A stretch of DNA of 64,000 nt from Synechococcus sp. MIT S9220 (GTDB taxonomy: Bacteria; Cyanobacteriota; Cyanobacteriia; PCC-6307; Cyanobiaceae): contig NZ_CP047958.1 of the NCBI RefSeq assembly GCF_014304815.1, positions 1,054,001-1,118,000 on the forward strand, read 5' to 3'. The notes under the pieces are model-generated. The model did no database searches. It was not told where the DNA came from and saw only the letters and a list, made by a program, of their open reading frames with translations. The number at the start of each line of letters is the position of its first letter. The first letter of the stretch is position 1. This document shows, one piece after another, positions 43,584 to 53,667 of this stretch. The translations under genes and the position numbers were made by a program.

Positions 43584-44711
43584 TCAGTTGAGGGATGCAA
43601 GGCAGCGACTGACATCCTCGTTGCTGATTTCGTCACTGATGATCACGTTGCCGATCCGGGTCGGCAGGACGAAACGCAGTCGCCCGTGACGGACCTTTTT
43701 ATCGCCTTGCAAGGTCCGCAGTGCAGCCTGCCGATCCAGGGACGGCCAGGCCACGGGTAAACCGGCCTTCTCGATGAGTTTCAGCTGGCGCTGTTGATCA
43801 GCTTCGCTCCAGAGACCTTTCTGAACGGCGAGGCGACCAACTGCCGCCATGCCGATCGCCACGGCTTCACCATGCAGCCAGGTTCCGTATCCCGTCAGGG
43901 TCTCCACCACATGTCCAAAGGTGTGGCCGTAATTGAGGATTGCGCGCTGGCCTCCTTCTCGTTCATCGTCGGCGACAACGGCAGCTTTGGCTTCCGCGGA
44001 AAGCACAAGGATGTCGTGCAGCAAGGTCGGATCCATGGCTGCAGGATTGGAGAGGTCTGAGGCTTCCTCAAGACGGCTGAAGAGGTCGGGGTCACCGATC
44101 ACTCCGTATTTGATCACCTCCGCCATGCCAGCGCGGAATTCCCTCACAGGGAGCGTGTTCAATGTCAAAGGATCAATCACCACCAAGCGTGGCTGGTGGA
44201 AGGCTCCGATCAGATTCTTTCCCTTTGGATGGTTCACACCGGTCTTGCCACCGATGGAGGCATCGACCATCGAGAGAAGAGTGGTCGGGACTTGGACGAT
44301 GCCAATGCCGCGCAGCCAGCATGCCGCTGCAAAGCCCGTCATGTCACCGACAACGCCACCTCCCAGCGCCAGCATCAGGGAGGTGCGTTCAAGACCCTCC
44401 CGCTGTGCCTTGTCGAGGATCAAGCTCAGTGTTTGCAGGGTTTTTCGTTCTTCACCCGCATCGATTTCCAGTAGCACGGGGTTGAAGCCTGCCGCTCTGA
44501 GTCCGCTCAGGCAGCTGTCGCCATATGGCCTGGCGACGTCAGGATTGCTGACCACAAGAATTTTGGTCCCTGACCGAATGGGTAGATCAGCCAGCGCAGA
44601 ACCGATGTCTTTCACCATCGAACGGCCGATGATCACGTCGTAGGGATTGCGCTCCAGGGACACCGTGATTGTTGTGCGTTCCTGCAAGTCAGCTGCCTGC
44701 ACTGTGCTCAT
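43584..44711 (-). CDS. aroB: 3-dehydroquinate synthase
   Basis: Second step of the shikimate pathway. 375 residues. NAD-binding [12 protein letters not shown] region, [38 protein letters not shown] and the metal ligands Glu in VIKYGVI (upstream AGMAE), His in LNYGHTFGH and His in [10 protein letters not shown]. Start at ATG; longer frames upstream are not typical. Zn or Co enzyme, cytosolic. Confidence 0.96.
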
Positions 44712-44788
44712 GGGCTGATGCTGCGGTTGCGATCCGCGGGGGATTCCATCGACTGACCTTATCCTCAGCCGCAAGCTCTTTGAGTTCG

Positions 44789-45685
44789 ATGAACCCTGCC
44801 TCCAGGCCAGATCGGCGTACAAGCCTCACCGCCTGGGCTTTTCTTGCGCCTGCACTCACGCTGTTGAGTCTTTCCGTGCTGATTCCTGCCGCAATGGCTC
44901 TGTTGATCAGCTTTACGCAGACAGGGCTTGATGTGTCAGAGCCGCTGAAGTTTATCGGCTTGGCCAATCTGCGCAGGCTCGCTGGTGATCCGATGTTCTA
45001 TCGGGTCTTAGGCACCACCCTCATTTACCTCGTGGGAGTGGTGCCTCCGATTGTTCTTGGTGCCCTGGCCTTGGCCGTTCTCGTCAATCGTGTCTTGCCT
45101 GGCATTCATTGGTTGAGAGCTGCGTTCTACACACCCGTGCTGGTGTCGATCGTCGTTGCAGCCATCGCCTTTCGTTGGCTCTATGCAGAGAACGGTCTGA
45201 TCAATGGCTGGCTTGAAGCCTTGATCGGATCAGGTTTCATTCCCATCGACTTCCTGACCAATCCGTTGCTGGCGCTGCCTGCCGTGATGCTTGTGACCCT
45301 TTGGAAAGGACTGGGGTACTACATGGTGATCTTTCTCGGAGGCCTTCAAGGGATTTCCAAGGAGCTGTATGAGGCTGCTGAACTCGATGGCAGTGAGGGC
45401 TGGAGGAAACATCTCGATATCACGCTTCCGCTGTTGCGTCCTTACGTGACTCTGGTTGCAGTTATCTCAGCCATTGCTGCCACCAAAGTTTTTGAGGAGG
45501 TTTTTCTGATGACACAGGGAGGTCCCGCCGACTCAACCAGGACCCTCGTTTATTACGTATATGACCAGGCTTTTGCAGAGCTTGAGATCAGCTATGCCTG
45601 CACTGTCGGTCTTGCCCTATTCCTGATTGTTTTGCTGCTGACGGCGATCAAGTTCGCCTTCAGTGAGGAACGCTCACTGATCTAG
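44789..45685 (+). CDS. Sugar ABC transporter permease (MalF type)
   Basis: 298 residues, six membrane helices, with the EAA loop [24 protein letters not shown] that contacts the ATPase. N-terminus ([33 protein letters not shown]) is MalF/UgpA-like. No partner permease, ATPase or binding protein adjoins, so the rest of the importer is elsewhere; compatible-solute (glucosylglycerol) importers of Synechococcus have such a permease, but the substrate is not proven. Confidence 0.85.
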
Positions 45686-45742
45686 GCCAGGTCCCTTCCA
45701 CGTCCCTGAGGGTTGGATGGCAAGCTTCAGAGGAGGACATCA

Positions 45743-46915
45743 GTGGCTATGGCCAGCGCTGCCGGGACAATTGGAGTTGTTGGGGGTGGTCAACTCGCAC
45801 TAATGCTCTGTGAAGCAGCGAAGTCGCGGGAGGTTGATGTGATCGTGCAGAGCGCATCTGGCCAGGATCCGGCGATGGCTGTCGCTCAGGAGCAGGTCTC
45901 AGGTGCACCAACTGATGTTGCTGCCACGGCTGAACTGTTGAAGCGCTGCCAGCACATCACCTTTGAGAATGAGTGGATACCCGTTGATGCCCTACGGGCA
46001 TTGGAACGTGATGGGGCGGTGTTTTCTCCTTCCCTTGTCAGTCTGCTGCCGCTTGTGAACAAGCTGTCTCAGCGCCGCATGCTGGATGATCTGGCGATTC
46101 CAAGTCCAGCCTGGATTGGGCTGGATGAGATCAACACCGACTCACCGGCTCTTCCCGCCGGCTGGACGTTTCCCGTCATGGCCAAAGCGGCCCATGGCGG
46201 GTACGACGGCAAGGGAACCTGCGTGATCCGTGATCTCAAGTCTCTTCGCAAGCTCTTGAGCAGCGTTTCCGTCGAGGATTGGCTGCTGGAGACCTGGGTG
46301 ACTTACGAGCGTGAGCTCGCTCTGGTCGTCAGTCGTGATCAGCAGGGACGAATCCGTAGCCTTCCACTGGTGGAAACGCATCAGAAGAGTCAGGTTTGTG
46401 ACTGGGTTCTTGCTCCTGCTCCAGCGGAGCAACTGCTGGAAGCCACCGCTTACAACATTGCAGCGTCCTTGCTCACAAGCCTCGATTACGTGGGTGTGAT
46501 GGCGCTGGAATTCTTTTACGGCCCTGCAGGTCTGATGGTGAATGAGATTGCGCCGCGGACGCACAATTCAGGTCACTTCTCGATTGAGGCGTGCAGCAGC
46601 AGTCAGTTTGATCAGCAGCTCTGCATTACTGCGGGTCTGCCGGTTCCGACAACCGGCCTTGTGGTGCCTGGCGCGATCATGGTGAATCTGCTTGGTCTGC
46701 GGTCTGAAGGCGTGGAATCCTTGGAGAAGCGGCTTGCTGCTCTGGAGGCCATCCCCAGCTCTCATCTGCATTGGTACGGCAAGAAAGAAAAGCCTGGAAG
46801 AAAGGTTGGTCATGTGACTGTGCTGCTTGACCAAGCCGATGCCGAAGCGCGTGGCCTGGAGGCTGAACGGCTTCTGAAGCAAATTCGTGAGATCTGGCCG
46901 AATCCCTTAAATTGA
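45743..46915 (+). CDS. purK: N5-carboxyaminoimidazole ribonucleotide synthase
   Basis: Carboxylates AIR with ATP and bicarbonate in purine synthesis. About 390 residues, ATP-grasp fold: GVVGGGQLALMLCEAAK, FPVMAKAAHGGYDGKG, EFFYGPAGLMVNEIAPRTHNSGHFSIEAC. The GTG at 45743 sits six bases behind AGGAGG, better spaced than the ATG two codons later. Followed at once by the 6S RNA gene. Confidence 0.95.
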   Translation: MAMASAAGTIGVVGGGQLALMLCEAAKSREVDVIVQSASGQDPAMAVAQEQVSGAPTDVAATAELLKRCQHITFENEWIPVDALRALERDGAVFSPSLVSLLPLVNKLSQRRMLDDLAIPSPAWIGLDEINTDSPALPAGWTFPVMAKAAHGGYDGKGTCVIRDLKSLRKLLSSVSVEDWLLETWVTYERELALVVSRDQQGRIRSLPLVETHQKSQVCDWVLAPAPAEQLLEATAYNIAASLLTSLDYVGVMALEFFYGPAGLMVNEIAPRTHNSGHFSIEACSSSQFDQQLCITAGLPVPTTGLVVPGAIMVNLLGLRSEGVESLEKRLAALEAIPSSHLHWYGKKEKPGRKVGHVTVLLDQADAEARGLEAERLLKQIREIWPNPLN

Positions 46916-46916
46916 G

Positions 46917-47100
46917 ATTGGACTACCTGGTTGGTGACAGCCTTTCTCTAGTGCTCTGATCTGACTCTCTTTCGACTTGGGGTGACTGTCGTGAAGGTGC
47001 CGTAAACCGGCCTTGCAGCCGGAAACGAATCCTCACTTTGTTGCCCCTTCTGGTAACTCCAGGTCGAACACTGGGGCTCGCACGGTCAGGTGGTCCACCC
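46917..47100 (+). ncRNA. ssaA: 6S RNA
   Basis: The 183-bp stretch after purK folds as a long rod: the ends pair as a 12-bp stem (UGGACUACCUGG with UCAGGUGGUCCA, one G-U or two), then GUG/CAC and AGCC/GGCU inner helices, leaving a central bubble that in 6S RNA mimics an open promoter and sequesters RNA polymerase. In cyanobacteria the 6S gene is known to lie behind purK, which fits exactly. The run ends near a T-tract at 47125. Ends are estimated to a few bases; the sequence centre (CCGGCCTTGCAGCCGG hairpin) is not shown to match a consensus. Confidence 0.8.
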
Positions 47101-47145
47101 ATTCCAAAACAAAGGTGCAGCAGCTTTTTTCAAGGTTCTGCATCT

Positions 47146-47520
47146 GTGAGCGATGTTGGTAGACCACTACCAAACACCACTACCCAAGCACTACTGAAAA
47201 CCAGTCGAGAATTTGGGATCAGTGTGTCAGGCGGAGCTGAAAAAGAACTCGAACGGATTGAGCGAGAGCTGGATTCCAGCCCGCCTGCAGGAAAGCCCCC
47301 GGTCAAGAGAGGCGGTCAATCCGGCTCACCTGATGAGCCCTCAAGAAACAACCACTTTGATGCTGTTGTTGTCGGAGCTGCACTGCTCGCAGCAATCGCG
47401 TTCATCACTTTGGTAGGTGAAAGCCTTAACCCGAAGCAGAAGACCCAGCTCACCGCTGCATCGATGGGTGGCGCCGCAGGACTGCTGGTCGGCTACGGCG
47501 TCGGGCGAATCAAACGCTGA
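47146..47520 (+). CDS. Small membrane protein behind 6S RNA
   Basis: 124 residues from GTG. A polar N-terminal half (EFGISVSGGAEKELERIERE, SSPPAGKPPVKRGGQS) leads to two membrane segments (FDAVVVGAALLAAIAFITLV and TAASMGGAAGLLVGYGVG) and a basic end. The frame is open upstream into the 6S RNA; that part has no coding character. Not recognised. Confidence 0.6.
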   Translation: MSDVGRPLPNTTTQALLKTSREFGISVSGGAEKELERIERELDSSPPAGKPPVKRGGQSGSPDEPSRNNHFDAVVVGAALLAAIAFITLVGESLNPKQKTQLTAASMGGAAGLLVGYGVGRIKR

Positions 47521-47566
47521 CCCACCTGGTCAGTGCAAGCCGGATGGGTGCCCCGAGTACGGGTGA

Positions 47567-47600
47567 GGCATCATGCGCGGACTCGTGCCTGATCCATGCT
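47567..47600. repeat. 34-bp perfect inverted repeat, copy 1 (leader)
   Basis: Identical over 34 bases to the reverse complement of 48923-48956. In both places it ends inside the start region of an exported-protein gene, so it is a shared 5' leader. Confidence 0.9.
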
Positions 47601-48033
47601 CCTCCGTTTTTCCATCGGACTGCTTGCTTCTGTTGTGGGCTGCTCTGTTATGCCTTCAATCGCACATGAGGGGAGAAATGGATCAAACATCTTTTACTTT
47701 GAATGCAAAGGCAGGAGAACACAGGGATCTGGTGTTGCAACAGGCTTCCCAATGAACTATCCAGTTCGTGTTCAATACAAATTGGATCTAGATGCGTCGA
47801 CCCTTACAGAGGTAGATATCGACACTGAACGGTTATCTGCTGGAAACGAGCCAATTGACATCAAAATCTATGGGAAAACACTTACTACAAAGTTCAGCAA
47901 TGACAGGCTGAATAAGGATTATGAGATTCAGATTCGTGGTGATGAGCGCCTGTTCTCGATAACTGTATTTCCGTCGAGTGGATTTGATCCTGACGCTTGG
48001 TATGGACAATGCCTCAATAGCAAATCTCTCTAA
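47596..48033 (+). CDS. Exported hypothetical protein with duplicated leader
   Basis: 145 residues. Signal peptide MLLRFSIGLLASVVGCSVM to ~SIAHEG; mature beta-like domain (FYFECKGRRTQGSG, VRVQYKLDLDASTLTEVDID, YEIQIRGDERLFSITVFPSS) with a Cys near each end. The ATG lies at the end of a 34-bp leader identical to that of the convergent gene 1.3 kb on. Function unknown. Confidence 0.65.
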   Translation: MLLRFSIGLLASVVGCSVMPSIAHEGRNGSNIFYFECKGRRTQGSGVATGFPMNYPVRVQYKLDLDASTLTEVDIDTERLSAGNEPIDIKIYGKTLTTKFSNDRLNKDYEIQIRGDERLFSITVFPSSGFDPDAWYGQCLNSKSL

Positions 48034-48221
48034 AGCATTGACCGACTTAGCAGAGGGGAATTGCGAGCCTCAATAGCCTGCCTGGTTTTAACAGGATGTT
48101 GACAACAAAAGGCCATGGCTTGGTGGCAGATGGAATGTAGCCCAGAGCACATAAGTTATGTAATGATTATTTGGCCTGCAGAGGAAATCACGATATATCT
48201 TCGTTAATTCAAAGGAGGATT

Positions 48222-48374
48222 ATGGAATTGCCCAAATACACCTTTGTGAATAAAGATGCTGGTTTGATTGAAGATTGGGTGAGACAGCGAATCAAAGACT
48301 TGCTTTTGAACAAGCGGTTTCAGGATGCTGACGCGCTTTATCGTGAGTTTGATGTTTGCGAAACTAGCGCATAG
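48222..48374 (+). CDS. 50-residue small protein
   Basis: A strong ribosome site (AAAGGAGG) stands just before the ATG, which decides the start. MELPKYTFVNKDAGLIEDWV, RQRIKDLLLNKRFQDADALY and REFDVCETSA: helical, charged, one Cys. Not recognised; likely real because of the ribosome site. Confidence 0.6.
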   Translation: MELPKYTFVNKDAGLIEDWVRQRIKDLLLNKRFQDADALYREFDVCETSA

Positions 48375-48400
48375 TCCTCGATGCCGAAGTCAGGCAAAAG

Positions 48401-48426
48401 AAGCCCCGCCGAAGACAGGGGGGCGG
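48401..48426. terminator. GC-rich hairpin, possible terminator
   Basis: Stem CCGCC/GGCGG between convergent small genes. On the minus strand it is followed by CTTCTTTT, so it could end transcripts of the exported protein gene at 48.6-48.9 kb; on the plus strand no T-run follows. Confidence 0.35.
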
Positions 48427-48600
48427 AGTTGATCTCTGCCGCTGGACGAGTATTAGCAAGATTTAATAGCAAGAAAATATATTTTTGAATATATGTTATT
48501 GGGGAGGGCTTATTGGAAGACCTTTGAATTTCGGCAGAATCCGCTTTGGATCGCAAAGCCTAACGACATTTCTCGGGAAAACAATGTAATCACTAAGCGC

Positions 48601-48927
48601 CTAAGACTGCATTCGTATTGACATGTCTCTATTTGGGAGATCGTAAATGTCTAGATAATACTGGCTCAAAAGTTCGTCAACAGCGCTAGGTTTTACGATA
48701 CCCTTCGCGACTAATTCACAATTGTAGATTGCAAGTGAAATAACACTGAATATGCCCAAGAATTCAGACACTTCCTTGTCGTTGGAGAATTCAGCCATGG
48801 TGTCTAAAAAGTTTTGATTGAACTCTGCCATCTCTCTATCGCTAGGCGCTCTTTCTTGCGCTCTCAAAGGCAATGAGGAGATAGCAACAGACAAGGTCAG
48901 CAATGCGATCGAAAGGCGGCGAAGCAT
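48601..48927 (-). CDS. Exported hypothetical protein with duplicated leader
   Basis: 108 residues. Signal peptide MLRRLSIALLTLSVAISSLP to LRAQ. Mature part helical: REMAEFNQNFLDTMAEFSND, FLGIFSVISLAIYNCELVAK, VDELLSQYYLDIYDLPN. The first residues resemble those of the convergent exported protein (MLxRxSIxLL), but the mature sequences do not. Shares the 34-bp leader. Not recognised. Confidence 0.65.
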   Translation of the reverse strand: MLRRLSIALLTLSVAISSLPLRAQERAPSDREMAEFNQNFLDTMAEFSNDKEVSEFLGIFSVISLAIYNCELVAKGIVKPSAVDELLSQYYLDIYDLPNRDMSIRMQS

Positions 48928-48956
48928 GGATCAGGCACGAGTCCGCGCATGATGCC
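48923..48956. repeat. 34-bp perfect inverted repeat, copy 2 (leader)
   Basis: Minus-strand copy of the leader at 47567-47600, ending in the ATG of the exported-protein gene just left of it. Confidence 0.9.
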
Positions 48957-49037
48957 GAGCTTTGCTTGGTTATGCCCGCTGCGTCAACGCTGATCTGGTC
49001 AAATGTCATCCCGGGCTGCTAACCCTGCCAGATGCGC

Positions 49038-49175
49038 TTAGAAGATTGGGGCCCGACCTTCATTGGGGACCTGGAAGCCTGACTCGTTGTCATCCGCTAT
49101 CTCTTCCAGCGAAATGACCTTCTCATTTTTTCCCTCTTCAGAGACACCCTCGAGTAGTGATGGCAATGGTGTCAA
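49038..49175 (-). CDS. Possible 45-residue acidic peptide or gene fragment
   Basis: TTG-started frame with protein-like acidic sequence (LLEGVSEEGKNEKVISLEEI, ADDNESGFQVPNEG). A TAA stands directly before the TTG and no ribosome site is seen, so it may be the tail of a broken gene rather than a gene of its own. Confidence 0.3.
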   Translation of the reverse strand: MTPLPSLLEGVSEEGKNEKVISLEEIADDNESGFQVPNEGRAPIF

Positions 49176-49204
49176 TTAGAAAGGAGGCCGTTGGTCCAAG
49201 GTAG

Positions 49205-49537
49205 TCACAGGGGCCGCTTATTGCTGTGCATTTTTAGAAGATGGCCGAGTATTGAGATATCAACATACCTTTGGTCATCAATGCTCATGTTTGTTTCACT
49301 CTCTGAGTGCCAGTCTTTATCCCATTTCCTCTTCTCCACCTTCTCTATCTGTGTGAGTCCATCTACTATCTCTTGTTCATTGTCTGCCATAGAAACAGCA
49401 GTGGCAAACCATTTCTCGGATGCCCTGTAATTCTTGACTGCTCTAACCTTTTCTGCAACTGCTTTGCCTGAGGCGTCTCTCTCGTTTAAGAGCAGCACTG
49501 CTAGGACAAACGAGCTCACCAAAAAGAAAGCAGTCAA
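49205..49537 (-). CDS. Small exported or membrane-anchored protein
   Basis: 110 residues. N-terminal hydrophobic segment MTAFFLVSSFVLAVLLL, then a charged helical part (EKVRAVKNYRASEKWFATAV, NEQEIVDGLTQIEKVEKRKW). Likely anchored by the first helix. Not recognised. Confidence 0.5.
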   Translation of the reverse strand: MTAFFLVSSFVLAVLLLNERDASGKAVAEKVRAVKNYRASEKWFATAVSMADNEQEIVDGLTQIEKVEKRKWDKDWHSESETNMSIDDQRYVDISILGHLLKMHSNKRPL

Positions 49538-49707
49538 ACTTTTTCAATCGATATAGAGGCATTTTAGATGCCTGTCATTTCTTGGAGGACATGAATCCTC
49601 TAAGTATTTTCTCTTAAGAGATTAGACCTAGGTAGTTTATTCCTCGACACAAATTAATTGACCATCGATGGAAAGTAGCTTATAGATCACTAACTCGGGA
49701 GCCAGGA

Positions 49708-49875
49708 ATGTATGAATCAATGCCAGTATCCGGCTCGTCTTCTATTACTGAAAGATGGGATGCACTTGAAGAATATTTTGTTTGCATAACTGAATGCGAT
49801 CTCAATGATGAAAACTGCATTACTAGCTGCCTGATGACTCATTTGAAAATCAATGACGGATCAGAAGCGGCATAG
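49708..49875 (+). CDS. 55-residue protein with twin CX3C motif
   Basis: ATG frame with four Cys in two CX3C pairs spaced by six residues (CITEC-DLNDEN-CITSC) in the middle, preceded by SSSITERWDALEEYFV and followed by LMTHLKINDGSEAA. Twin CX3C hairpins make disulfides or bind metal in small helical proteins such as mitochondrial Tim chaperones; relation is only by pattern. AT-rich. Not recognised. Confidence 0.45.
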   Translation: MYESMPVSGSSSITERWDALEEYFVCITECDLNDENCITSCLMTHLKINDGSEAA

Positions 49876-49899
49876 TCCAGTCTTTGCTCACAAGCTGGC

Positions 49900-50317
49900 T
49901 CAGTAATAGTCCACCCACAGCTCTCTGTCGGTCTTCAGCAGTGCAGGCTCACCGCCGGGCATCGGTCTGCCGTGATCGGCAAACGCGTGCTGATCTTTGC
50001 CCCAGGTGCTTGATGGATCTCTGTGAAACCGGTCACACCAATAGTCGTTCGGATCCGTGAGTCATCCGTCCATACCCCCCTTTCTTGCTCTTGAAAGAGG
50101 GATTCTCCGGGTCTTGCTCCTTGATCTGTCCCTTTCTCTCGCCATCAGCTGAGTGGTCGTTGGAGCAAGGCAAGAGGACGTTCTGAACCTGCTCCTGATC
50201 GTTTGCTGCAACAGCTCCGAGACGTGGCTTCTCCGGTTTTGTTGCACAAAGTGGTTGCCTTAAGCCAACCTTAAGGAGTCGCTTTCGTCTCCTTCTGGGT
50301 TCGGGCCCTGATGCCAT
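49900..50317 (-). pseudogene. Frameshifted small gene
   Basis: Two open frames on the same strand look like halves of one protein. The upstream one (LLPCSNDHSADGERKGQIKE, QDPENPSFKSKKGGYGRMT) runs out into an unlikely tail (HGSERLLV). The downstream one, with no start codon, begins near 50055 (DPNDYWCDRFHRDPSSTWGK, RPMPGGEPALLKTDRELWVD). A shift of one base near 50055 would join them into about 138 codons. Family unknown. Confidence 0.45.
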
Positions 50318-50495
50318 GGCCGCAATTATCCGCTTTGTATCCGGCCCGGAACCGCTATGGCGGCGATGCCTTGAGCGTTGCTGGGTCCTGGAATGCGACG
50401 TTGATCCGCTGATTCTTCAGGCTCGTTGGCTTCACCACCAAGGGCAGCATCACGATGCAACTGCCGTCGAAGAAGAGCTACACCCTGTGTTCTGA
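50316..50495 (+). CDS. Possible 59-residue protein
   Basis: ATG frame just before the lipoprotein gene: MAAIIRFVSGPEPLWRRCLE, VLECDVDPLILQARWLHHQG, ATAVEEELHPVF. Two Cys, one His-rich patch. No ribosome site is obvious. Starts 2 bp inside the edge of the divergent broken gene. Confidence 0.35.
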   Translation: MAAIIRFVSGPEPLWRRCLERCWVLECDVDPLILQARWLHHQGQHHDATAVEEELHPVF

Positions 50496-50507
50496 AACTT
50501 TGCGCTT

Positions 50508-50930
50508 GTGAGACGTCATCATTTGGCGGTCGCAATTGCTGTGCTGATTGTGGCTCCCTCCTGTTCGATGAATTACCCGTCAAGATCTGAAGCGGAGAGC
50601 GCTTGTCGTGAATGGCAGGCGCAGGAATCCAAGGTTGATTACGAGCGCGAGTTATTAGGTTTTGAAAAAAGAACAAAATTTGAACAAGAGAACCCCAGGC
50701 CAGATGCAGCTTTTTGGGACGATCAGATTATTGACTGGGAAAAGCAAAAATTAGCTTATGCTTCAAAGACGATTGTTGAGAGTGTTGCAATGAGTTCTCG
50801 CTACTGCCTGTTGGAGCAAGAAAATTCTCGGTTTTTAGGTTATGAAAATGACACGATCAAAAAAGGGACCTATCGGGATGAAGCGGGAAAAAAGGGCGAG
50901 TGGAGAGTTGTTAAATATTTTCGTTATTGA
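50508..50930 (+). CDS. Putative lipoprotein
   Basis: 140 residues. Signal peptide MRRHHLAVAIAVLIVAPSC with a Cys (APSCS) suited to lipid attachment, then a charged helical domain (ESACREWQAQESKVDYEREL, WDDQIIDWEKQKLAYASKT, SRYCLLEQENSRFLGYE) and a basic end. Not recognised; the two Cys REW/RYC may pair. Confidence 0.65.
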   Translation: MRRHHLAVAIAVLIVAPSCSMNYPSRSEAESACREWQAQESKVDYERELLGFEKRTKFEQENPRPDAAFWDDQIIDWEKQKLAYASKTIVESVAMSSRYCLLEQENSRFLGYENDTIKKGTYRDEAGKKGEWRVVKYFRY

Positions 50931-50970
50931 TACTTTTGCGATTCTCTTATGACGTTTTCAAGCGATGTTA

Positions 50971-51393
50971 TCAGCCTTTCCGCGGATCATTATTCGTTCT
51001 ATCATCGTGAATGACTTGCAAACCCTTTAAGTTAAGACGAGTCCCAACCGTTTCTTCGTCTTTTATCCAATAGCCTGTCTGAACAAAGATGAGTTTTGCC
51101 GTGATCTCGCTATCCATAGATAGCTTCTGATTTTTGAGCGTTTTGTAGTTTTGATCAACGATTTCAGGAGTTTTTTCTTCGTTCCAGGAAAATACTGCCT
51201 GATACCTATTCCCCTCGATTGAATGCCATGGTGCAGGATTGATTTTGCATGAATCAGGGTTGCCGGCTTTTGCCAATTGGTGCTGCAGCTCATCAGTCCT
51301 GTCGTCTTCTAGTCGTTGGACAAGCTCCTTGGGCAAAATTGCCGAATTGCCAGTGAGTGTCACAGGCTCTTTTGTGATCATTACTTGTCTCAT
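50971..51393 (-). CDS. Hypothetical protein
   Basis: 140 residues, polar, no export signal: VQRLEDDRTDELQHQLAKAG, NPAPWHSIEGNRYQAVFSWN, NQKLSMDSEITAKLIFVQTG. Possibly a truncated exported protein, since MRQVMITKEPVTLTGNSAI has no hydrophobic stretch but the gene just ahead has one in another frame. AT-rich. Not recognised. Confidence 0.5.
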   Translation of the reverse strand: MRQVMITKEPVTLTGNSAILPKELVQRLEDDRTDELQHQLAKAGNPDSCKINPAPWHSIEGNRYQAVFSWNEEKTPEIVDQNYKTLKNQKLSMDSEITAKLIFVQTGYWIKDEETVGTRLNLKGLQVIHDDRTNNDPRKG

Positions 51394-51670
51394 TGCAGGA
51401 CTCTCAGGTTTGATTCCGTTAATACCGTTGTTGAGAATGCTCGCATGCTTTGTTTCAGCCTATCGATTTGTTCCTTGATTTGAAATAAGTTCTCAGGCTT
51501 GCCTCCTTACTCACCAATGCCAGTGTTGTCATTAAGTACTTTATTGATTTTGAGCGGTATTGCTTCTTTATTTCTTGATGTCTGAGATCTTGAAATGACT
51601 GGTTGATTCATGTTTTCAGAAGGCCCCTAAGAAGTTTTCTTGTCTTGGGTGAGTCTGATTGACGGACAAC

Positions 51671-51946
51671 TTAAGGACTGCTCGTCTTGATGCGCTTCAG
51701 TAGTTCATCTTTGGCGAGTTGCGTTACGACAAATACTTCTTGCGCGCTCGTGCCTTTGCGCGCCAGCATTTTGAAGCCGCCTGTGACCGGTATTGAAACG
51801 CGTAACTGAAGGCCTGAGCTATGACCTCGCACCCTGGAAATCACGCCCGGAGTGATCGTCTGGATCTCCGGATCTCTGGCAAGAACCTTTAGCCAGGGGA
51901 TCAACCCCTCCACATAGGTGCTGTGCGTAATGACCAGGCGCCCCAC
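51671..51946 (-). CDS. DUF2103 protein
   Basis: 91 residues, GTG start. GRLVITHSTYVEGLIPWLKV, ITPGVISRVRGHSSGLQLRV, GGFKMLARKGTSAQEVFVVT: the DUF2103 (COG4031) family of small proteins suggested to bind metal or nucleic acid. Cytosolic. Divergent from the next gene with overlapping 5' ends if the latter's long start is used. Confidence 0.85.
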   Translation of the reverse strand: MGRLVITHSTYVEGLIPWLKVLARDPEIQTITPGVISRVRGHSSGLQLRVSIPVTGGFKMLARKGTSAQEVFVVTQLAKDELLKRIKTSSP

Positions 51947-51959
51947 AGAGAGTTGCTAC

Positions 51960-52253
51960 TTGCTGAACGTTGTGCTGGTCGAAGCTAGTGGATTTGGCTA
52001 CAGAGAAGAGAGAGATCTGCCAGCCATGCTCCGATCTGTCGACAGGCTGCTTTGTGAGGTGACCGGTCCTTTGCAGGACCGCTGCGGTCCCCAGGCCAGG
52101 GTTCTAACGGCGGAGGTTCACGGTGATGAAGTCCGTGGCTTGGCGTTTTGTCCTGGCAAGGTTCTTCGATACGTGTTGGCTGCTCGCAACAGGCGCATCA
52201 AAACAACGGAGATGCTTCGTTTGGCTCGCAGCAGCAGGCAGCCTGCTGCTTGA
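51960..52253 (+). CDS. Hypothetical protein
   Basis: 97 residues from TTG, or longer from 51930. LVEASGFGYREERDLPAMLR, SVDRLLCEVTGPLQDRCGPQ, VLTAEVHGDEVRGLAFCPGK. Balanced composition and core-like base use. The TTG start is preferred because upstream starts would overlap the DUF2103 gene. Not recognised. Confidence 0.55.
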   Translation: MLNVVLVEASGFGYREERDLPAMLRSVDRLLCEVTGPLQDRCGPQARVLTAEVHGDEVRGLAFCPGKVLRYVLAARNRRIKTTEMLRLARSSRQPAA

Positions 52254-52278
52254 ACACCAGCCTCATCAATGGCTTGAT

Positions 52279-53667
52279 TCAGTCGAGCTCACTGGCCAGA
52301 ACCGAGCTGAGTGCTTGTTCGACTTTGGCTTGAAACAGCTTTGTGTCCACGCGTAGAAGCAGCAGACCTGCGGCTAGAAGACCGACAGCCTGAACAACAA
52401 ACACTCCGGCGTAAGCCTCAAAGCTGTTTTGTGATCCAGTGAGTTCTCCGAACAGGCTAAGCAGCGCTCCGCCGCTAATCGTGGCGAGCCCTCGCGCATA
52501 GGCCTGGGCAAGCCCCCAGACACCGATGAAAGTTCCCGCCATCAGTGGCGAGGTCAGACCGAGCATCAACGTGAGGCTTGCATTGGTGCTAATCCCAGCT
52601 CCAACTCCGAACAGAAACAATGCCGCTCGGAATAGTGGAGTTGAGGCCAGCAACCCCGCGACGACCATCATCAGTACAAACAGCGCTGAGAGCACTCCAC
52701 CGGTTAGTGCTGTCCGTTGGGCTCCAAGGCGTGGAGTGATCAGGAACCCTGTTGCAGCAATGCCCAGCAATGTTCCGATGCCCCAGACGGCATTGAGCCG
52801 AGTTGTTGTACAAAGGTCCATGGCGAAAACGGCTCCGCCGTAGGGCTCCAGGACAGCTTCCTGGAGAAACAACGCGAAGGTAAACAGGGACAGAACAGCA
52901 AAGAAATATCCCACCTGTGGAGATCCTTTCAGCACTGTCCATGCGCCACTTAGAGACATTTCCTGAGTGGCTGCTAGTCGTGACTGGTGTCTGCCGATGT
53001 CAGGCTTCAGGCGTGGCTCTACCCCTGCGATTGAAGCCACGACAAGCATGAAGATCACCAGCGGAGCCACCGTGATCAACCGTTCCACTCCGGAGATCAG
53101 ATTGCTCAACTCGGCTGTGGCGCATGAGGAGCCAAGAAACGAACTCAGCAGAATCGCTCCCGCCACGATCCCCACCATCAGCATCGACCACACGATGGAG
53201 ACCAGAGCAGGTCGCTGTTTTTCAGTGCTCACATCAACCAGCAGCGCTGCAAACGGCGTGGAGCTGGCTGCAATGGCCAAGCCGTAGAGCACAAACACCA
53301 GAGCCAGGATCAATCCTCTCCAGATCACATCGGCCTGACTTCCGGATTGGGATGCTGCCGCGAGCCAGAGAACGGTGTGGCCTGCAATCCATGTCAGGAC
53401 GCAGAACGCCGCTGCACCGCCAACAATGAAAGGAGTGCGCCGCAATTGCTTCCAGCGGCAGCGATCCGATTGCTGTCCGAACCAGATTCTTGAAAAGGCA
53501 ACCAGCTGTTGACAGCCCAGAGCCAGGGCGGTCAAGGCGGCAGGCACCTCAAATTCATCGATCAGCAGCCTGTTGAAGATGCCAAGGGTCAGAACCGAGA
53601 GAGCGCCAAGACAAGCCTGAAACAGGCCCAGGCGCAGTGCAAGGACGATGAACCGTGCTGATCCCAC
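52279..53667 (-). CDS. BCD/PucC-family MFS carrier
   Basis: 462 residues, twelve membrane helices, major facilitator fold of the PucC/LhaA group, whose members help assemble light-harvesting and chlorophyll proteins and are related to chlorophyll carriers. Start LALRLGLFQACLGALSVLTLGIFNRLLIDE is the family signature; FSRIWFGQQSDRCRWKQLRR is the loop between helices 2 and 3. In cyanobacteria usually named BCD family MFS transporter. Thylakoid or inner membrane. Confidence 0.85.
   Translation of the reverse strand: MGSARFIVLALRLGLFQACLGALSVLTLGIFNRLLIDEFEVPAALTALALGCQQLVAFSRIWFGQQSDRCRWKQLRRTPFIVGGAAAFCVLTWIAGHTVLWLAAASQSGSQADVIWRGLILALVFVLYGLAIAASSTPFAALLVDVSTEKQRPALVSIVWSMLMVGIVAGAILLSSFLGSSCATAELSNLISGVERLITVAPLVIFMLVVASIAGVEPRLKPDIGRHQSRLAATQEMSLSGAWTVLKGSPQVGYFFAVLSLFTFALFLQEAVLEPYGGAVFAMDLCTTTRLNAVWGIGTLLGIAATGFLITPRLGAQRTALTGGVLSALFVLMMVVAGLLASTPLFRAALFLFGVGAGISTNASLTLMLGLTSPLMAGTFIGVWGLAQAYARGLATISGGALLSLFGELTGSQNSFEAYAGVFVVQAVGLLAAGLLLLRVDTKLFQAKVEQALSSVLASELD

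What the first reader, a model, noticed from the sequence alone, without database searches (positions are those of the whole stretch)
47567..48956. Two convergent exported-protein genes share an identical 34-bp leader
A 34-bp stretch before and into the start of the gene at 47596 is repeated exactly, inverted, before the gene at 48927. The signal peptides stay partly alike, while mature proteins are unrelated. A perfectly kept non-coding leader next to diverged coding sequence suggests either a functional 5' UTR (small-RNA or protein target) or recent gene conversion. The repeats also frame a 1.3-kb segment that could invert.
Basis: seen in the sequence. Interest (0 to 1): 0.6.

Follow-up and report, generated by a model that had tools for sequence, protein, structure and literature searches.

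The report
Shared gene-start cassette on exported proteins
Two unrelated secreted-protein genes in a marine Synechococcus begin with the same short stretch because both carry a copy of a gene-start cassette (leader plus export signal) that relatives carry in front of various surface and secreted proteins, some of them visibly spliced onto it.

Summary
In detail: 34 identical bases (51 of 58 over the whole repeat) precede two convergent genes with unrelated mature proteins. It is not a private duplication. A sequence model of the leader finds 49 copies (E<=1e-5) in 14 of 31 genomes of the genus (marine Synechococcus). By my reading 21 precede invasin/intimin-like outer-membrane barrels, the probable source; 11 precede other exported proteins (metallopeptidase, metallo-beta-lactamase fold, small secreted proteins); 15 are orphans or pseudogenes; 2 are cut by contig ends. 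A weaker copy precedes an iron-uptake porin. For four captured genes, relatives elsewhere lack the leader, and the captured 5' end is a chimera that switches in a short stretch shared by both parents. The 23-nt non-coding core differs about three times less between copies than fourfold-degenerate sites of the adjoining signal-peptide codons, so it is probably functional. The exact identity in this genome is best explained by gene conversion: in the closest relative the two leaders differ, and 6 of 7 changes in B match A. Inversion has no support. Closest precedent: Borrelia erp genes (common leader, mature parts of independent origin). What the core does is unknown.

The parts
47567..47595 (+). 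Leader A: 23-nt core (47567-47589) and 6-nt spacer before the start codon of gene A
47596..47667 (+). Signal peptide of gene A, type 1 (MLLRFSIGLLASVVG...); cleavage site estimated by eye
47596..48033 (+). Gene A, 145-aa small exported protein; relatives in 7 other genomes of 99 searched
   Evidence: no Pfam or NCBIfam match
47541..47566 (+). Other upstream module (gcaagccggatgggtgccccgagtacgggtga region) joined to leader A in place of the usual upstream block; its like precedes Nif11-type precursor genes in relatives
48928..48956 (-). Leader B: same 23-nt core and 6-nt spacer, before the start codon of gene B
48957..48978 (-). Upstream block of leader B (consensus GCGCAACCAAGCAAAGCCC-like), usual in the family
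48601..48927 (-). Gene B, 108-aa small exported protein with type-1-like signal peptide; full-length relative only in G002 (interrupted by a stop) among 99 genomes
   Evidence: no Pfam match above cut-off, no NCBIfam match

Best explanation
The repeat is two copies of a gene-start cassette of marine Synechococcus: about 50 nt of leader, a start codon and a Sec-type signal peptide beginning MLRRLSIGLLAS. It most likely comes from a multi-copy family of invasin/intimin-like outer-membrane barrels. Bodies of unrelated exported-protein genes have repeatedly become joined to it in frame, at short stretches shared between the cassette and their own start codon or signal peptide, so that each has a new leader and a complete signal peptide. 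Shown: the dispersal, the chimeric junctions, the slow evolution of the 23-nt core. Inferred: that joining is by homology-assisted recombination, and that the core is kept because it sets expression (promoter, translation start or RNA target) of surface proteins. In this genome no barrel gene was found and the cassette survives on genes A and B; gene conversion between the two inverted copies recently made their leaders identical.
For: 49 copies at E<=1e-5 in 14 of 31 genus genomes (the model was built from 18 of the copies), read one by one: 21 barrels, 11 other exported proteins, 2 cut, 15 orphan or broken. Barrel fold: Foldseek best hits invasin 4e1t E 2.8e-6 and intimin 4e1s 1.6e-5. Of 76 barrel rows found by mature protein alone, 19 have the core with <=5 mismatches. 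Relatives of captured genes without the leader: 6 of 7 metallopeptidases, 11 of 12 examined 252-aa proteins, 4 of 7 small secreted proteins, 13 of 14 examined porin rows. Chimera scores beat either parent in four captured genes; in the three tested, no one of 1915-1916 other ORF starts gave as large a gain. Core pairwise difference 0.146 against 0.422 at fourfold sites of the adjoining codons in 19 genes. Conversion: 6 of 7 differences of G000 B from G002 B match A, p 0.007.
Against: Most copies were found through the leader itself, which flatters its conservation; only the barrel set is free of this, and there 52 of 76 rows have no leader. Two of three chimera margins over control are narrow (18 against 16, 14 against 13), the control kept no family structure, and the fourth case was not run in it. 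No structure, Rfam family or known motif explains the core. No expression data were seen. The barrel model has low confidence (mean pLDDT 45). In the two cases compared the captured gene lies at a new locus, so gene body rather than cassette may be what moves. The absence of barrels in G002 may reflect its 80% completeness.
Confidence: 0.7

Rival explanations
1. Plain duplication and decay without function: barrel genes multiplied, decayed and left their 5' ends in front of whatever reading frame followed; leader similarity only reflects recent copying and gene conversion.
For: 15 of 49 copies are orphan or broken; conversion is seen in the window pair; copies cluster in some genomes.
Against: Fourfold sites of the same copies have diverged about three times more than the core, which copying alone would not give; fusions are in frame and complete a signal peptide.
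Confidence: 0.2
2. The leader is the end or target of a small mobile element that lands upstream of genes.
For: Many dispersed copies, some orphan, with different flanks upstream of about -51.
Against: The shared part has no fixed 3' end: it stops at different codons in different fusions. No terminal repeats or element genes were looked for beyond reading these loci.
Confidence: 0.07
3. An invertible switch: recombination between the two inverted leaders exchanges genes A and B, as in Mycoplasma vsp/vpma loci.
For: Inverted, 34-nt identical copies 1.3 kb apart; in Mycoplasma the 5' untranslated region and signal peptide are also shared (PMC2268961 passages).
Against: G002 has the same orientation and the same outer flanks; both genes have their own leader; no recombinase seen by eye nearby.
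Confidence: 0.03

Closest known systems
Borrelia burgdorferi erp (OspE/OspF/Elp) genes with the upstream homology box
   Same: A common upstream stretch and leader peptide in front of exported proteins whose mature parts have many independent origins (PMC10016077 passages; PMC7002432 passages).
   Different: There lipoproteins at allelic sites on cp32 prophage plasmids; here dispersed chromosomal copies in a cyanobacterium, Sec-type signal peptides, and leaderless orthologs that let the junctions be placed.
Mycoplasma vsp / vpma surface-lipoprotein loci
   Same: 5' untranslated region and signal peptide conserved, rest of the genes unlike (PMC2268961 passages).
   Different: Those switch by site-specific inversion with one active promoter and a recombinase; neither was seen here.
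Mobile promoters / horizontal regulatory transfer
   Same: Upstream non-coding DNA spreads or is replaced among genes (recalled concept; only search listings seen).
   Different: Here the module includes the signal peptide and joins unrelated coding sequences in frame.
Invasin/intimin (inverse autotransporter) barrels
   Same: Fold of the probable source family.
   Different: No Pfam or NCBIfam model matches it above cut-off; 335-390 aa in the copies read, no test of secretion.

Membership tests
Common-leader exported-protein families (Borrelia erp kind) | Near-identical upstream DNA and signal peptide in front of unrelated mature proteins | tested here: met
Common-leader exported-protein families (Borrelia erp kind) | Mature parts joined to the common leader by recombination | tested here: met
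   Chimeric junctions against leaderless relatives in four genes
Common-leader exported-protein families (Borrelia erp kind) | Shared promoter and operator giving coordinated expression | not testable with these tools
   No expression data; core constrained
Borrelia erp genes proper | Allelic location on cp32 prophage plasmids | tested here: not met
   Copies at various places of chromosomes and contigs of Synechococcus
Site-specific inversion systems (Mycoplasma vsp/vpma) | Segment found in both orientations | tested here: inconclusive
   Two genomes, same orientation; no reads available
Site-specific inversion systems (Mycoplasma vsp/vpma) | Recombinase gene at the locus | tested here: inconclusive
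   None seen by eye among ORFs of 44000-53000; five ORFs run against Pfam gave none
Known structured RNA leaders (Rfam) | Match to a curated covariance model over the leader | tested here: not met
   Window at gathering scores: only 6S RNA; nine relative loci at E<=1: four sub-threshold matches away from the leader, taken as chance
Inverse autotransporters (source family) | Invasin/intimin barrel fold | tested here: inconclusive
   Best Foldseek hits are these, but TM-score by query 0.39-0.40 and mean pLDDT 45

The most novel reading that the evidence does not exclude
Marine Synechococcus uses a gene-start cassette (regulatory leader plus signal peptide) as a reusable module: homology-assisted joining within signal peptides recruits bodies of unrelated exported proteins into one surface-protein regulon controlled by the 23-nt core, and can release a gene from its old control. 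In G007 (strain UW140) the captured iron-uptake porin lacks GTGTGAGGA, the stretch complementary to the Yfr1 small RNA, which 9 of the 13 other porin rows examined carry upstream.
Probability: 0.4. Interest if true: 0.75.

Novelty: new variant of a known kind. Interest (0 to 1): 0.57.

Why it matters
It would show a simple natural route by which bacteria rewire expression and export together: one recombination inside the signal peptide swaps leader, start and export signal and leaves the mature protein intact. The captured genes are surface or secreted proteins of abundant ocean cyanobacteria, where the surface matters for phages and grazers (general knowledge). Relatives without the cassette give before-and-after pairs, so the question of how a regulon recruits genes becomes directly testable.

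Tried and rejected
Further own-genome places of the leader: inside or at the start of other ORFs, treated as chance. Pattern hits outside Synechococcus: one of 11 stretches in genome contigs (a gammaproteobacterial MAG, inside an exonuclease-like ORF) and the single hit in viral contigs (inside a tape-measure-like ORF), rejected as chance; ORF names by eye. Phage collection, 291 nt of one barrel copy: no match at E<=0.01. One weak BLAST match in another family (G069, E 0.006, query 62-88) was not followed up. RNA structure: consensus fold without compensatory changes; the simple inverted repeat fails at one pair in 16 of 18 sequences; a longer stem is ambiguous, paired cells 78.5% and two doubly changed cells; not claimed. 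Upstream reading frame ATG-CGC-GGA: 19 changes in 4 third positions against 30 in 10 first and second positions; not claimed. Sub-threshold Rfam matches (Leu_leader, CRISPR-DR20): taken as chance. Gene A fold: mean pLDDT 50.8, too low to search. Paper searches listed nothing that I recognised as this cassette; only open-licence papers are held and I saw listings only, so this is no proof of absence.

Full report
Observation. The window lies in a 2.42-Mb single-contig genome (G000). Relatives that carry the repeat are named marine Synechococcus strains. At 47567 and 48956 two identical 34-nt stretches stand inverted before two convergent genes; the similarity runs on into the signal peptides (58 nt, 88%). 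Shuffling excludes chance. The mature proteins show no similarity; gene A matches no Pfam or NCBIfam family, gene B none above cut-off.

Not private to the pair. In the own genome there are two convincing copies. BLAST of 101 nt around leader A against 99 genomes (own included) matched 14: 13 of the 31 of the genus and one weak match in another family. Some of those matches are to an upstream module, not the leader. A sequence-only model of leader plus upstream block, built from 18 copies, matched 17 of 31 genus genomes at E<=0.01 and gave 49 copies in 14 genomes at E<=1e-5. An exact 23-nt pattern in one genome for each of 84,980 species gave 11 stretches, 10 in Synechococcus and one by chance; near relatives of the window may be left out of that list.

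What follows the 49 copies (my reading of the frames). 21 precede barrel proteins, some truncated: 13 with signal peptide type 1 (MLRRLSIGLLASAVAIAPLPLKAQ; two of them divergent barrels), 8 with type 2 (M[HQ][RQ]SLRLSLSLSGVAALALA, one with ATA in place of the start codon). 11 precede other exported proteins: genes A and B in G000 and G002 (B interrupted in G002), a 252-aa protein, a 107-aa protein, a metallo-beta-lactamase-fold protein and a metallopeptidase-like protein (Pfam), and three small proteins with a third signal peptide (MLRSAITSAASLLAIALTNPLLTANA). 2 are cut by contig ends. 15 are orphans or broken. A weaker hit (E 9.7e-5) precedes a porin (NF033921 iron uptake porin). Six other rows with E above 1e-5 were not counted.

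Source family. The barrel was found in 21 of 31 genus genomes at E<=1e-8, up to 21 matches in one, none in G000 and G002 (G002 is 80% complete). Its model resembles invasin and intimin barrels (4e1t E 2.8e-6, 4e1s 1.6e-5) at low confidence (mean pLDDT 45). To avoid finding leaders by leaders, I looked upstream of 76 barrel rows found by mature protein and starting near its first residue: 19 have the core with <=5 mismatches, 5 with 6-8 (one of these at an unlikely place), 52 none; a few rows have little upstream sequence. Type-2 barrels of G012 and G006 often have a diverged form at the same distance (GCCATTCTGCGCTCAATAGATCC). Of the 13 type-1 rows listed, mismatches to the 23-nt core were 0,0,1,1,1,1,1,2,2,2,4,6,10; my filter dropped three similar rows with 8, 8 and 11.

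Capture. I compared relatives of captured genes. Metallopeptidase: 1 of 7 close relatives has the cassette (G003); G024 and G016, 92% and 91% identical in the mature part, begin MKRW..PLPALA without leader. 252-aa protein: 1 of 12 examined of 14 matches (G001); G024, 89% identical, has MQTLLSLPTLLASALANAFVQAQ. Small secreted protein: 3 of 7. Porin: 1 of 14 rows examined of 20 (its leader has 6 mismatches). Metallo-beta-lactamase-like: 1 of 2, the other with a similar signal peptide. Gene A: 2 of 8 a close leader, 3 a decayed one (6-8 mismatches), 3 none. Gene B: nothing beyond G000 and G002 except a signal-peptide match. The 5' ends of four captured genes are chimeras; matches to cassette alone, native alone and best chimera: 252-aa 49, 63, 80 of 90; metallopeptidase 60, 51, 76 of 93; porin 46, 66, 80 of 90; small secreted 46, 59, 81 of 90. 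The switch lies in short shared stretches: nt 24-32, 46-59 and 23-27 of the coding sequence, and around the start codon for the fourth. Against 1915-1916 other ORF starts as 5' parent the cassette gave the largest gain in the three cases tested: 25 against at most 15 for the metallopeptidase, but only 18 against 16 and 14 against 13 for the other two. In the two cases compared, similarity to the ortholog begins inside the signal peptide and ends at or shortly after the gene end, while two leaderless orthologs share flanks. So these captured genes sit at new loci, and the gene body rather than the cassette may have moved.

Constraint. In 19 genes with type-1 signal peptides the 23-nt core differs by 0.146 on average between pairs, against 0.422 at fourfold-degenerate third positions, 0.184 at first and second positions and 0.480 in the 22 nt upstream; in 11 barrels 0.116 against 0.336. 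Conversion would lower both classes alike, so the contrast points to selection on the core, with the reservation that these copies were found through the leader.

Why the two are identical here. G002 (Synechococcus AG-673-F03) has the same locus in the same orientation, 94% identical. The 29-nt leader A is the same in both genomes; leader B is not. Over 58 nt, G000 B and G002 B differ at 7 positions and G000 B equals A at 6 (binomial p 0.007 at one in three). At three positions (18, 19, 50) G000 B has the state of A and G002 B that of the family consensus. I read this as gene conversion of B by A; the numbers are small.

Function of the core. Unknown. No Rfam family, no supported hairpin. It mostly ends 6 or 7 nt before the start codon. 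The captured porin gives a hint: 9 of 13 other porin rows carry GTGTGAGGA upstream, complementary to nine bases of the ultraconserved Yfr1 sequence ACUCCUCACAC (PMC2190773, passages); one more has TGTGAGGA; three of the 13 and the captured gene have neither. That Yfr1 acts on such porins in Prochlorococcus is recalled; PMC6974561 passages report predicted Yfr1 targets enriched in outer-membrane-protein genes in Nostoc and direct interaction with 11 candidates in E. coli assays.

Known precedents. Borrelia erp genes are described as arising from one leader sequence with the remainder of independent origins (PMC10016077 passages; UHB also in PMC7002432 passages). Mycoplasma vsp and vpma genes share 5' untranslated region and signal peptide but switch by inversion (PMC2268961 passages).

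Verdict. A real, dispersed leader-plus-signal-peptide cassette with repeated in-frame joining to unrelated exported genes: a new variant of a known kind. The inversion idea has no support.

Noticed in passing
window 47540-47566; L071, L072, L073, L074, L075: The stretch just upstream of leader A (ccggatgggtgccccgagtacgggtga) is another shared upstream module: a close form precedes Nif11-type RiPP precursor genes in G024 (two) and G016 (one) and another place in G001 and G002.
   Followed up: partly
L042, L053, L057, L059, L065, L066: An 80-nt repeat upstream of or near several leader copies looks like the 3' end of another multi-copy gene family (...RRMLRHNAIEAWETMQKSGGWKRCQPRW*).
   Followed up: partly
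window 46917-47100: 6S RNA gene (RF00013, 95.2 bits) just upstream of the locus.
   Followed up: no
G012 and other genus genomes: Invasin/intimin-like barrel family with up to 21 matches per genome; the three members run against Pfam and the one run against NCBIfam matched no model above cut-off.
   Followed up: partly
L040, L051 (G015:C51, C53): Two leader copies are fused to a frame ...PLGQPLLLVSTAALATVA... that runs off the contig end: perhaps a further captured family.
   Followed up: no
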